Source: an uncultured Rhodospirillales bacterium (lineage in GTDB: Bacteria > Pseudomonadota > Alphaproteobacteria > Azospirillales > Azospirillaceae). Taken from it: a DNA stretch of 64,000 nt. This document shows, in pieces, positions 32,677 to 36,631 of this stretch. The stretch is taken from positions 62,001 to 126,000 of the forward strand of contig CAIYNU010000035.1 of NCBI GenBank assembly GCA_903927615.1, read 5' to 3'. The translations under genes and the position numbers were made by a program. Position 1 is the stretch's first letter. Each line of letters opens with the position of its first letter. The notes beneath the pieces are model-generated. The model was not told where the DNA came from. It saw only the letters and a program-made list of their open reading frames with translations, and ran no database searches.

Positions 32677-32863
32677 TCTCGACACGGTATTTTCATGATT
32701 CGGGGACCATGATCCGGAAGCGGCAAGCAGGCCGGACAAAACCCCTGGGTAACGGCCCTGCCGTGTGGCATCCTCCCGCCGGTGATCGCCCCCTTGCGTC
32801 GGTCGGGCGTTGGACGGTGCCGCCATGCCGGAGACTCCGGCCGCATTGGAAAAGGAGGCGTCC

Positions 32864-33271
32864 ATGAACAAGACAGCGGTGATTGGGGCCGTTCTCGGGC
32901 TTTTGGTTCTTCCGCCTGGACTGGGGTCAGCCCTGGCGGATACCGCGAAGGCAGAACCGACGCCGTCGGTCTCCCAGCCAACGGTCTCGGTGTTGCCCCG
33001 GGACCTGATGACCTTTGGCGAGCGATTCGCCCTGTTGCGAAAGCTACGCGCCGCCAAAACAGCCGATGAACGATTCGACCTGTGGGCCGAAAACTATGCC
33101 GAACTGGAAAAACGGGCCAGTGAGCGGGGCGTCGTGCTGCGGGACTACGGTCCCATGATGATGATGATGGATCATGGCCCAACCGCCCAAAGGTCCGGTC
33201 GCCGCAGCCGGGTGGGCATGCTGCCGCCGGTCGGCAACACCGTTCGCCCGCGTGCGCCGATGGCGTGGTGA
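32864..33271 (+). CDS. Exported small protein with a five-Met run
   Basis: ATG 32864 lies just after AGGAGG. The 135-residue protein has a clear signal peptide (MNKTAVIGAVLGLLVLPPG..., cleavage near ALA-DT). A charged helical region (about 50-95, LRKLRAAKTADERFDLWAENYAELEKRASERG) and GPMMMMMDHGP near residue 105 follow. Exposed Met clusters occur in periplasmic copper-binding proteins, but that link is only suggestive here. It is not recognised. Confidence 0.65.
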   Translation: MNKTAVIGAVLGLLVLPPGLGSALADTAKAEPTPSVSQPTVSVLPRDLMTFGERFALLRKLRAAKTADERFDLWAENYAELEKRASERGVVLRDYGPMMMMMDHGPTAQRSGRRSRVGMLPPVGNTVRPRAPMAW

Positions 33272-33322: not shown

Positions 33323-33986
33323 TCAAAAGGGTTCGTCTTCCAGGTAGCGGGCCACGACATGGCCAAGGCTCTTGAGTCGGCCGTCTTCAGTGCGCCTTCG
33401 GTAATCTGCAATCATCTCGGCCCGGTTGACGGACGCGATATCGCCGGCTTGAATATCGGTTTCAATGCCGGCAAGGAGCCTTCCCCGCTCCGCCTTGATT
33501 GCCGGGTCGTTGAGGTTCAGCGTCGTGATCACCGTATCCGCCATGGTGTCATCGCTTCGGGTCGGCCGAATCGCCCCGTTGCCATTGTAGCGGAACCGCA
33601 TTTCGCACTGCGGATCAGACGGAATGATGTCATTGGCAGGGTCAAACCAGTCTCCCTTGGCGTCGCCGCAAGTGCTTGGAATTTGCCGCTCCCTACTGGG
33701 CGGGCCGCAACTGGCGAACAGATTCTGATAGTCGAGGGCAAGGTTCGGAAACGCTGTTTGGGGCCAGAAATGGTCGATATGGCCGCCTGTCGTCCTCTCT
33801 CGGTCGAGGCGCCGTCCGCAATAGGCGCGAGACGTGTCCCTGCTCCTTAACCAGGGCTGTGTAGGTCCCGGTCTTTGGCTCGCCCCCGAAATTGTTCCAA
33901 CTGGGAGTCCACCCAGACTCCGAATTTTCCAGGGCCAACCATTCCCGGAGACAGGACGGCGCCGGACCTTGCGACGAATATTTCAT
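33323..33986 (-). pseudogene. ptuB: PtuB-like HNH nuclease (TIGR02646 family) with a 1-nt frameshift
   Basis: ATG 33986 overlaps the ptuA stop (ATGA). The first frame gives MKYSSQGPAPSCLREWLA and WTPSWNNFGGEPKTGTYTALVKEQGHV, then goes out of register. Removing one base near 33829 continues in the next frame with CAYCGRRL, GGHIDHFWPQ, NLALDYQNLFASC, CGDAKGDWFDP and a C-terminus ending at 33323. The reconstructed protein is 220 residues with the CxxC, HxxHF and CGxxKG features of the HNH proteins paired with PtuA in Septu. As sequenced, the nuclease core is not translated in frame. A recent mutation, a sequencing error or frameshifting cannot be told apart here. Confidence 0.82.
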
Positions 33987-35275
33987 GGCGTCTGGGCTCG
34001 CCGTCTCCGGTCCAACCGGGCCTGAGCCAGGGTCAGTTCCGGCGGTTCCCCCTCAATCTCCTGGCGCAAGCTCTCCAGCAGCGTCGCGGCCTCGGACAAA
34101 CGGCCGGCGCCGATGGCGTCTTCCAGGAGATCAAGGCGCGCCTTGATCTCCGCGTCCCGTTCATCGGCCCCCAACACCGCCAGCAAAATCTCGCTGCTAT
34201 CGCGACCATAGGCCGCCCTGGGAATGCCAACCTCGATCCGCCCGTCCGCACCGGGATGCAGGACGCGAATGGAGTCGGCATGAACCCGCCCGAGCACCTG
34301 CGGCGAATGGGTGGTGATGACGAACTGGCAACCGGGAAAGGTCTCGGTCAGCCAGGGCAGGATCACCCGCTGCCAGCGCGGATGCAGGTGCAACTCGATT
34401 TCGTCGATCAGGACAATTCCCGGCCCTTGCAAGGGATCGGGAAGATCGGGATTCGGCATGGCAAGTCGTCGGGCCAGATCACCGGCCAGGGCCAGAAATG
34501 TCTGTTCGCCGCTGGACAACTGCGAAACCAGCAAGTCCACGCCGTTTTTGGTGACGTGCAGTCCCTGCCGGTGTTCCGGATTCTTAAGACCGGTTTTTTC
34601 CGTCATCGCCCGCCGTACGGCTTCCAGTTGGCCATCGCGATAGGACTGGTCTTCCCGCCAGTGCTGGGCTTCTTCCAGACTGCGATCCCGGAACCACACG
34701 ACAAATTCGCGAAATTCCAAATCGGCCTTGAGGGCGCCCGAGAAGGCTGCTGCTTTTCTTTGATCGGCAGCCTCCCGAAGCCGTTGCGGCACATCCAACA
34801 CCGCCCGGCGTTGACCATAATAGATTAAAAGGGGCTCACCGGAGAAATCAGCCCCTCTATTCTCGGTGCGATGCCGAACATAGACATTCAAATTATCAAA
34901 TTGGCTTCGGCTTTCTTTTCCCAGTATCTTACCAGTGCGAGTTTGTTTACGCACTGCCCAAGCTAGAGGATTGTCATGAGCACTAACGTTGACCTCAAGG
35001 GAGGTCATAGTTGTCGCATATGCTTCGGAATCGCCGACCCCACCTCCTCGACGAATATCCCGATGATGATCAGTTTCCTTCAAGGGTAACGCGCTTTGGG
35101 CTGATGCTCTGATGTATCGTGCCAGATATTGGTCGAGCAAGATGGCGAGGGCGTCGAGAATACTGGTTTTACCCGTGCCATTTTTACCCACCAGCACCGT
35201 CAGACGCGGATTAAATTCAAGAGCGAGGCTCACGATGCCCCGGAAGCCCTCGATTTTTACCGATACCAGTTTCAT
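33983..35275 (-). CDS. ptuA: PtuA-like AAA/ABC-type ATPase (Septu defence)
   Basis: This 430-residue ATPase of the AAA_21/RecF-like group starts MKLVSVKIEGFRGI at ATG 35275. Walker A is GKNGTGKT (30-37), the signature is SSGEQ, Walker B is IVLIDEIELHLHP and the switch His is in TTHSPQVL. There is no TOPRIM domain, so it is not an OLD nuclease. The following gene encodes a TIGR02646-type HNH protein with ATGA coupling, which is the ptuA-ptuB arrangement of the Septu anti-phage system. No reverse transcriptase or msr-msd lies nearby, so this is not a retron-Septu hybrid. It sits 163 bp downstream of tRNA-Gln, a typical spot for acquired islands. Confidence 0.82.
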   Translation of the reverse strand: MKLVSVKIEGFRGIVSLALEFNPRLTVLVGKNGTGKTSILDALAILLDQYLARYIRASAQSALPLKETDHHRDIRRGGGVGDSEAYATTMTSLEVNVSAHDNPLAWAVRKQTRTGKILGKESRSQFDNLNVYVRHRTENRGADFSGEPLLIYYGQRRAVLDVPQRLREAADQRKAAAFSGALKADLEFREFVVWFRDRSLEEAQHWREDQSYRDGQLEAVRRAMTEKTGLKNPEHRQGLHVTKNGVDLLVSQLSSGEQTFLALAGDLARRLAMPNPDLPDPLQGPGIVLIDEIELHLHPRWQRVILPWLTETFPGCQFVITTHSPQVLGRVHADSIRVLHPGADGRIEVGIPRAAYGRDSSEILLAVLGADERDAEIKARLDLLEDAIGAGRLSEAATLLESLRQEIEGEPPELTLAQARLDRRRRAQTP

Positions 35276-35438
35276 CGTCCGCCGCCCAAGCCGTGTCCCG
35301 ACGGAAATACGCGATCGCCCCCTTCCTGTAAACAAGCCATGCCCCCTTTCTGCCAAAGGCGGCACGCCACAACCGACGGCGCGCCCGTTACGGGCGACAA
35401 CCAGGCAAGATGTTGGTGCATTAAAAAGGTGGGAGGGT

Positions 35439-35513
35439 TGGCTGGGGCGGGAGGATTCGAACCTCCGGATGGCGGAATCAAAATCCGCTGCCTTACCACT
35501 TGGCGACGCCCCA
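35439..35513 (-). tRNA. tRNA-Gln (anticodon UUG)
   Basis: A cloverleaf can be folded from 35513 down to 35439, including an encoded CCA. The acceptor stem is TGGGGCG / CGCCCCA, the anticodon stem GCGGA / TCCGC with loop TTTTGAT (anticodon TTG, plus-strand bases 35479-35481), and the T-arm contains GGTTCGAATCC. It reads CAA codons as glutamine. It lies between cbiB and the Septu-like module. Confidence 0.95.
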
Positions 35514-35632: not shown

Positions 35633-36631
35633 TCACTGCCAGCCGGACAGCCAGGCATAGACGGCGACCACCAGCGCCGTGGCCACCAGGCAGGCGCGCC
35701 GGTACAGGGCAAGCGCCTCTTCGATGTCGGCCGGGGTCGCGTCCGCCCGACCGTCGCCCATCCAGGCATCCTCGACTCGGGCGCCCCCATACACCCGCGG
35801 CCCGGCCAGCCGCAGGCCCAGCGCCCCGGCCATGGCCGCTTCGGGCCAACCGGCATTGGGCGAACGGTGGCGCCCGGCGTCGCGCCAGGCGGTGGTCAGC
35901 GCGCCGCCGGCCAAGGCGCCCGGGGTCAGCGTCGCGGCCAGGGCGATCAGCCCGGCGGTCAGCCGTGCCGCCGGCAGATTGACCAGATCATCGAGTCGGG
36001 CCGCCGCCCAGCCGAACGCCCGATAGCGCGGTGACCGATGGCCGATCATGCTGTCGGCGGTGTTGATCGCTTTATAGAGGACAATGCCCGGCAATCCGCC
36101 CACCGCCAGCCAGAACGCCGGCGCCACCACGCCGTCCGAAAAGTTTTCGGCCAGGCTCTCGATGGCCGCCCGAGCCACCGCAGGTTCGTCCAGGCTCTCG
36201 GGGTCGCGGCCGACGATTTTCGCCACCGCCCGCCGGCCTTCGGGCAAGCCTTCGCCAAGGCCTTCGGCCACCGCCGCCACATGCTCGCCCAGGCTGCGTT
36301 GGGCCAGCAGCATTGCCGCCAGCACCGCTTCGATCAGCCAGCCAACCTTCACCCCGTCAAAGGTCCAGTCCCGGCAGGCCAGGACCACGGGCACCGTTAC
36401 CGCCAGCCCCAACGCCGCCAGCGCCAGCACCGCCGCCAGTCCGGCCAGCCGCCGTCCAGGCTCGCTCCAGGCCGGGCGGTTCAGGGCGAGTTCCAGCCAA
36501 CCGATCACGGCGCCCAATACCATCACCGGATGCCCCACGGTTCGCACCAGCGCCGCCGGGTATCCCACCAGTCCATCGATAACCATGGCCACCGCCAGCA
36601 CCGCGACGCTATGCTCGACATCCCCCATCAC
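35633..36631 (-). CDS. cbiB: Adenosylcobinamide-phosphate synthase (CbiB/CobD)
   Basis: This 332-residue polytopic membrane enzyme attaches (R)-1-amino-2-propanol phosphate or its precursor to adenosylcobyric acid. The start ATG 36631 follows GGGGGAGGA. Hallmarks are the N-terminal hydrophobic HPVMVLGAVIGWLE, IVGRDPESLDEPAVARAAIESLAENFSDGVVAP, YKAINTADSMIGH and RYRAFGWAAARLDDLVNLPAARL. cobC, which makes the aminopropanol phosphate, diverges from it 42 bp away. In P. denitrificans naming this gene is cobD. Confidence 0.95.
   Translation of the reverse strand: MMGDVEHSVAVLAVAMVIDGLVGYPAALVRTVGHPVMVLGAVIGWLELALNRPAWSEPGRRLAGLAAVLALAALGLAVTVPVVLACRDWTFDGVKVGWLIEAVLAAMLLAQRSLGEHVAAVAEGLGEGLPEGRRAVAKIVGRDPESLDEPAVARAAIESLAENFSDGVVAPAFWLAVGGLPGIVLYKAINTADSMIGHRSPRYRAFGWAAARLDDLVNLPAARLTAGLIALAATLTPGALAGGALTTAWRDAGRHRSPNAGWPEAAMAGALGLRLAGPRVYGGARVEDAWMGDGRADATPADIEEALALYRRACLVATALVVAVYAWLSGWQ

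What the first reader, a model, noticed from the sequence alone, without database searches (positions are those of the whole stretch)
33323..35513. Septu-like (ptuA-ptuB) defence module beside tRNA-Gln, with the nuclease out of frame
An AAA/ABC-type ATPase with ATGA coupling to an HNH protein of the TIGR02646 type is the Septu arrangement. The HNH core (CAYC, GHIDHFWPQ, CGDAKG) appears only after removing one base near 33829. If the shift is real, this strain has an ATPase without its nuclease; if it is an error, it has an intact defence system at a tRNA locus.
Basis: partly seen in the sequence, partly recalled or inferred. Interest (0 to 1): 0.72.

Follow-up and report, generated by a model that had tools for sequence, protein, structure and literature searches.

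The report
Septu defence pair, nuclease gene frameshifted
This is an ordinary two-gene bacterial anti-phage system called Septu, next to a transfer-RNA gene and not found in the sister species, whose nuclease gene is interrupted by a one-base frame break in this assembly, so as it reads it is probably switched off.

Summary
The minus-strand gene at 33983-35275 is a full-length PtuA ATPase (PADLOC PtuA E=1.1e-115; solved PtuA 8ee4 E=2.7e-33). It overlaps the next start codon by four bases (ATGA). What follows is PtuB, the HNH nuclease, split between two frames. The first 52 codons lie in one frame and the HNH core (33829-33323, 168 open codons) in another. Against three intact homologues there is one base too many, just before the conserved C-x-x-C cysteine pair. 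As assembled, the cell can make PtuA and a 97-residue PtuB stub without the HNH core; searches found no second PtuB in the genome. No reverse transcriptase was found in the whole genome, so this is Septu type I, not retron type I-A. Neither gene was found in the four sister species. One sister, whose assembly breaks there, looks like an empty site. Another carries a type IIG restriction-modification gene beside its tRNA-Gln. Whether the break is a real mutation or an assembly error cannot be decided here. Two other frame breaks turned up in 398 kb of this genome, both in dispensable-looking genes. A degraded Septu pair also occurs elsewhere in the class. Ordinary: a known system, probably recently inactivated.

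The parts
33983..35275 (-). ptuA: AAA/ABC-type ATPase of Septu, 430 aa, intact; Walker A GKNGTGKTS, signature LSSGE, Walker B VLIDEIE, H-loop THSPQ
   Evidence: PADLOC PtuA1 PDLC00271 E=1.1e-115 over 1-427; PDB PtuA 8ee4 E=2.7e-33; invariant columns D291, E292, H323, S254, G256 and nearly invariant K36 kept in a 16-sequence alignment. The motif names are from recall.
33693..33986 (-). ptuB 5' part as the sequence reads: 97 codons, the first 52 homologous to PtuB, the rest out-of-frame tail
   Evidence: PADLOC PtuB PDLC00346 E=7.6e-4 over residues 1-52; 54% identity over 1-52 to intact PtuB in L005; alignment
33323..33829 (-). ptuB 3' part in another frame: HNH nuclease core and C-terminus, 168 codons, no ATG/GTG/TTG start before 33601
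   Evidence: PADLOC PtuB PDLC00346 E=2.1e-36; NCBIfam TIGR02646 63.8 bits, cut-off 52.15; 49% identity to the Azospirillum cavernae homologue; ORF listing
33827..33830 (-). position of the frame break: 4 bases where three intact homologues have 3, just before the C-x-x-C motif
   Evidence: tblastn of the two pieces against L005, L006 and L029; alignments
35439..35513 (-). tRNA-Gln (TTG) directly upstream of ptuA
   Evidence: ARAGORN; Rfam RF00005 64.2 bits
35276..35438 (-). 163-base leader between tRNA-Gln and ptuA; no Rfam family at gathering threshold
   Evidence: sequence

Best explanation
A probably horizontally acquired Septu type I module (ptuA-ptuB, coupled by ATGA) sits beside tRNA-Gln between a hybrid histidine-kinase gene and cbiB. 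Its ptuB has suffered one recent one-base frame break just before the cysteine pair (C-x-x-C, presumably zinc-binding) of the HNH domain. When intact, by analogy with studied Septu and retron I-A systems, PtuA would form an ATP-binding complex with PtuB and hold the nuclease until phage infection, when PtuB cuts nucleic acid (phage DNA or a host tRNA, depending on the member) and replication or growth stops. In this sequence PtuA can be made, but only a 97-residue PtuB stub without the HNH core, so the system is predicted to be inactive. Shown: family membership, gene order, position and nature of the break, no match for the genes in the sister species' assemblies beyond weak ATPase-domain matches, no second PtuB match in the genome. 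Inferred: acquisition by transfer, complex formation, activity when intact, inactivity now, and that the break exists in the living strain.
For: PtuA and PtuB profiles. Solved PtuA and PtuB chains. Homologous pairs with the same gene order; of the ten distinct pairs for which one search lists both genes, five have the same 4-base overlap. A one-base excess against three intact homologues. PtuA in 1 of 5 genus genomes, PtuB matches only in G000, G005 and G014 of 99. Codon usage: 18 of 21 blocks of ptuA fit the host, but the 5' part of ptuB does not (2 of 3 blocks negative) and its HNH part fits weakly. One PtuB match only in the own genome (at E<=0.001; at E<=1e-8). No RVT_1 reverse transcriptase match in the own genome, with E. 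coli among the controls that ring. In E. coli, mutation of the HNH motif of PtuB or of the Walker motifs of PtuA abolishes Septu defence (PMC13096335, passages), and retron-Eco7 PtuA or PtuB expressed alone does not arrest growth (PMC11555353, passages).
Against: No reads were seen, so the break may be an assembly error. At least two other frame breaks exist in the 398 kb examined, so such breaks, real or not, are not rare here. The HNH frame has no internal stop and keeps its catalytic residues, as an error would leave it too. The target of this PtuAB and its activity when intact are unknown.
Confidence: 0.6

Rival explanations
1. The frame break is a sequencing or assembly error and the strain carries an intact, working Septu type I system.
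For: Draft genome of 104 contigs. Two other frame breaks in 398 kb, both in genes that otherwise look intact, one of them at a run of ten G, a typical place for errors as well as for slippage. The HNH frame shows no other decay over 168 codons.
Against: The ptuB break is not in a homopolymer. The two other broken genes are dispensable-looking: one has an intact 88% identical copy, one is a GGDEF protein. Random errors would also hit essential genes, but three cases are few.
Confidence: 0.35
2. The break is bridged: ribosomal frameshifting, or slippage at a switchable site, gives some full-length PtuB, so the system is tuned or phase-variable.
For: The HNH frame stays fully open and shares its frame with ptuA (coordinates).
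Against: None of the three intact homologues compared has a break there. The site has no homopolymer, only dinucleotide doublets, and no stop codon at the shift point. The frame after the break has no start codon before 33601.
Confidence: 0.03
3. The ATPase belongs to another family (OLD/Gabija-like, or a retron I-A effector) and the pair is not Septu type I.
For: PtuA-like ATPase domains are shared among Septu, retrons and OLD (PMC9252829, passage). NCBIfam's retron Ec78 PtuA model matches at 254 bits, and the best solved chain by E-value is a PtuA of the retron type.
Against: The NCBIfam match is below the model's 500-bit cut-off. At 430 aa the protein is shorter than the 550-aa solved retron Ec78 PtuA. 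No Rfam hit but the tRNA in the window and no RVT_1 match in the whole genome. GajA and OLD chains score far lower than PtuA.
Confidence: 0.02

Closest known systems
Septu type I (ptuA-ptuB), Doron 2018 (recalled) / PADLOC PtuA1-PtuB1
   Same: ATPase followed by HNH protein, best profile matches PDLC00271 and PDLC00346, no reverse transcriptase
   Different: ptuB is interrupted by a one-base frame break in this assembly
Azospirillum cavernae Septu pair (L027; the same place as L006 of G014)
   Same: 57% identical PtuA, 49% identical PtuB core, same 4-base overlap
   Different: ptuB intact; no tRNA found on its 17-kb locus
Retron Ec78 / Eco7 (type I-A) PtuAB effectors
   Same: related ATPase and HNH proteins
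   Different: these come with a retron reverse transcriptase and msr-msd (PMC11555353, passages); no reverse transcriptase match here, and PtuA lacks their extra length

Membership tests
Septu type I | PtuA ATPase | tested here: met
   PDLC00271 E=1.1e-115, full length
Septu type I | PtuB HNH protein (TIGR02646) directly downstream | tested here: inconclusive
   Both parts match PtuB (7.6e-4 and 2.1e-36; TIGR02646 63.8 bits over the 52.15 cut-off for the 3' part) but in two frames. The gene is present; an intact protein is not encoded as the sequence stands.
Septu type I | no reverse transcriptase gene ahead of ptuA (in PADLOC distinguishes type I from type II / retron I-A; PMC8565338, passages) | tested here: met
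   Ahead of ptuA lie tRNA-Gln and cbiB. RVT_1 (PF00078): no match in the own genome, 3 of 14 control genomes ring. No retron RNA at gathering threshold in the window.
Septu type I | anti-phage activity | not testable with these tools
   needs phage challenge
Retron type I-A | reverse transcriptase with msr-msd RNA at the locus | tested here: not met
   no RVT_1 match in the genome; Rfam gives only the tRNA in the window
Retron type I-A | score above NCBIfam NF041760 cut-off (retron Ec78 PtuA) | tested here: not met
   254.3 bits, cut-off 500

The most novel reading that the evidence does not exclude
The frame break in ptuB is a regulated on/off state (recoding or reversible slippage) that silences the costly nuclease while PtuA is kept, at a tRNA-Gln site that collects different defence genes in different species of the genus without an integrase beside it.
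Probability: 0.03. Interest if true: 0.5.

Novelty: new member of a known kind. Interest (0 to 1): 0.17.

Why it matters
Modestly. It adds one Septu locus in the family of Azospirillum, shows a patchy defence pair beside tRNA-Gln, and is a clean example of a defence system that gene callers and PADLOC's default workflow would be expected to report as an ATPase without its nuclease, because the nuclease is split (this blind spot for pseudogenes is described in PMC9252829, passages; PADLOC itself was not run). If the break is real, it is a snapshot of recent loss of a nuclease with retention of its ATPase.

Tried and rejected
att-like repeat of the tRNA-Gln 3' end around the module: no exact match of 13 or more bases elsewhere in the window. 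The own genome has ten Phage_integrase (PF00589) matches, nine over the cut-off, but none on contig C35, which holds the window. Tyrosine-integrase-driven insertion at the tRNA is therefore not shown. Promoter and terminator scans: promoters 1 found against 0.6 expected, terminators 2 against 3.8. PADLOC on six neighbouring window proteins: none matches a defence family except a weak kinase-domain match of the hybrid kinase (5.7e-4).

Frame-break base rate: a first six-frame codon-usage decoding gave 21 calls in 398 kb; on inspection 19 had a stop and a start at the switch, as ordinary gene junctions do. A simpler single-strand version gave 100 calls (power 98 of 140), which I took to be mostly antisense shadows without checking them, and dropped. 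The final version gave 4 calls, with power 83 of 140 simulated breaks. Two of the 4 (C35:48803 and C35:165607) I set aside on reading them as complete short ORFs. The method does not detect the ptuB break itself, because ptuB fits host codon usage poorly, so it undercounts breaks in acquired genes. Both other breaks are on C17; only the GGDEF one lies at a long run (ten G); for the PLP enzyme the nearest run of four or more is a run of five G about 13 bases on.

Structure prediction was not run: sequence matches to solved PtuA and PtuB made it unnecessary. Li et al. 2024 on PtuAB structure was not held; what is said of complex formation is recalled, or from its title as cited in PMC13096335. 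Doron 2018 was not opened (recalled). Literature: Septu+PtuA+PtuB, 12 papers listed; Septu with frameshift, defence systems and pseudogene terms, 3 papers, one read in passages; Septu/HNH/ATPase, 24 papers, 15 listed, PMC8565338 read in passages; a five-term search gave 0.

Full report
What is there. On the minus strand, in order, lie cbiB (35633-36631), tRNA-Gln (35439-35513), a 163-base leader, an ATPase gene (33983-35275, 430 codons) and, overlapping its stop by ATGA, a reading frame that starts at 33986. The frame from 33986 closes after 97 codons. A second frame, 33829-33323, is open for 168 codons. By its coordinates it lies in the frame of ptuA, and it has no ATG, GTG or TTG start before 33601.

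Families. The ATPase matches PADLOC PtuA1 PDLC00271 at 1.1e-115 over residues 1-427. The first frame matches PtuB PDLC00346 at 7.6e-4 over residues 1-52 (profile 1-50), and the second at 2.1e-36 over profile positions 52-209, so the two pieces are consecutive parts of one PtuB. The second piece also passes the NCBIfam TIGR02646 cut-off (63.8 against 52.15 bits), while the retron Ec78 PtuA and PtuB models score below their cut-offs (254.3 of 500; 65.9 of 150). Among solved structures PtuA hits an 'AAA family ATPase' chain and retron PtuA chains best (1.5e-39 and weaker) and Septu-type PtuA 8ee4 at 2.7e-33; OLD, AriA, Rad50 and GajA are far weaker. PtuB hits TIGR02646/PtuB chains, best 1.6e-8. 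Pfam gives AAA_21 and AAA_15 for the ATPase, nothing for the first PtuB piece and only a sub-threshold HNH match (E=0.099) for the second.

The break. tblastn of the two pieces against three distinct intact homologues (G005 = L005, Azospirillum cavernae = L006, a Thiomargarita MAG = L029, whose ptuB runs off its contig) leaves 3 bases between residue 52 and the AYC/CYC residues in each; the window has 4. The alignments show where it falls: after EQGHV, in the codon of the first cysteine of C-x-x-C. The HNH residues (HIDH, N36) and the CGDAK motif are kept after the break. The stretch is open in 72 of 20000 shuffles, and its other frames have 3 and 7 stops. The break is therefore recent, or not real.

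Is the break real? The genome is a draft of 104 contigs. I examined 398 kb of 4.57 Mb for frame breaks by codon usage (power 83 of 140 simulated). Four calls came out; two I set aside on reading; two are breaks in otherwise good genes: a Cys/Met-metabolism PLP enzyme and a GGDEF protein, whose halves on both sides match the same Pfam family. The PLP enzyme has an intact copy, 88% identical, elsewhere in the genome. The GGDEF break lies at a run of ten G; the PLP and ptuB breaks do not lie in a run of four or more. The method misses ptuB itself because its codon usage fits the host poorly. All three broken genes look dispensable, which leans towards real mutation. The presence of other breaks, one at a long G run, keeps assembly error possible. 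In the class sample, PtuB is found in 10 of 385 genomes, 14 places. One of these, G330, has a stop inside ptuB, and its PtuA matches lie in two ORFs, so a degraded Septu pair occurs elsewhere. G093:C82 gave only a partial PtuB match and was not examined.

Distribution and site. PtuA is in 1 of 5 genomes of the genus by family search. With the protein as query, 38 of 99 genomes (own one included) have some match at E<=0.001, but most are short ATPase-domain matches. Matches over most of the protein are in G005, G014, G091 and G040 besides the own genome, with partial ones in G093. PtuB is in 3 of 99 including the own genome. In the four sister species PtuB gives no match and PtuA only weak short ones in G002 and G004 (best 6.6e-5). 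The flanks are found in sisters: the hybrid kinase at 76-80% in G002 and G004, cbiB in G001-G004, in pieces in G002 and G003. In G004 the cbiB/tRNA-Gln contig ends 122 bases past the tRNA in a 61-base repeat that is also near the end of the kinase contig, in the orientation expected of neighbours. This fits a site without Septu, but the repeat occurs elsewhere in G004 too, so adjacency is not proved. tRNA-Gln is not beside cbiB in the contigs seen of G001, G002 and G003. In G002 the next long ORF past the tRNA-Gln 3' end, about 0.6 kb away, is a type IIG restriction-modification protein (PDLC03630 4.6e-72). Two of five species therefore have a defence gene at the 3' side of a tRNA-Gln. In G003 a 4-alpha-glucanotransferase gene lies there; in G001 an ORF that was read but not searched against profiles. 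The genome's ten integrase matches are all on other contigs and no tRNA-end repeat was found, so a hotspot is only suggested.

How it would work. From passages read: in E. coli Septu EcB88 both the Walker motifs of PtuA and the HNH motif of PtuB are needed, and that Septu cleaves tRNA-Tyr (PMC13096335; abstract start). Retron-Eco7 PtuA or PtuB alone does not arrest growth, the pair does, and another Septu is reported to cut DNA (PMC11555353, passages). With PtuB cut short before its HNH core and no second PtuB match in the genome, the system here is predicted to be inactive. Its target when intact is unknown; the neighbouring tRNA-Gln is no evidence that it targets that tRNA. No reverse transcriptase match exists in the genome, so a retron partner is excluded as far as that model reaches.

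Verdict. New member of a known kind; low interest.

Noticed in passing
34126-34151: A perfect 26-base palindrome inside the ptuA coding region, the only perfect gapless palindrome of 18 bases or more in the 64-kb window.
   Followed up: partly
G000 contig C17 near 91128 and 147617 (L109, L112): Two other frame breaks in the same genome: a Cys/Met-metabolism PLP enzyme with an intact 88% identical paralogue on C35, and a GGDEF-domain protein broken at a run of ten G near its GGEEF motif.
   Followed up: partly
L116:3716-6985 (G002 contig C156): A type IIG restriction-modification gene next after tRNA-Gln in a sister species, hinting that the 3' side of this tRNA collects defence genes.
   Followed up: partly
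L092 (G330:C2): A degraded Septu pair elsewhere in the class: ptuB with an internal TAA, PtuA matches in two ORFs.
   Followed up: no
L066:90-149 and L064:1-61 (G004): A 61-base repeat, 97% identical, near the ends of two contigs and elsewhere in G004, possibly a small interspersed repeat that broke the assembly beside tRNA-Gln.
   Followed up: partly
32810-33271: Short plus-strand ORF with a signal-peptide-like stretch (by eye) and an MMMMM run, no Pfam match at 0.001, between the kinase gene and ptuB.
   Followed up: no
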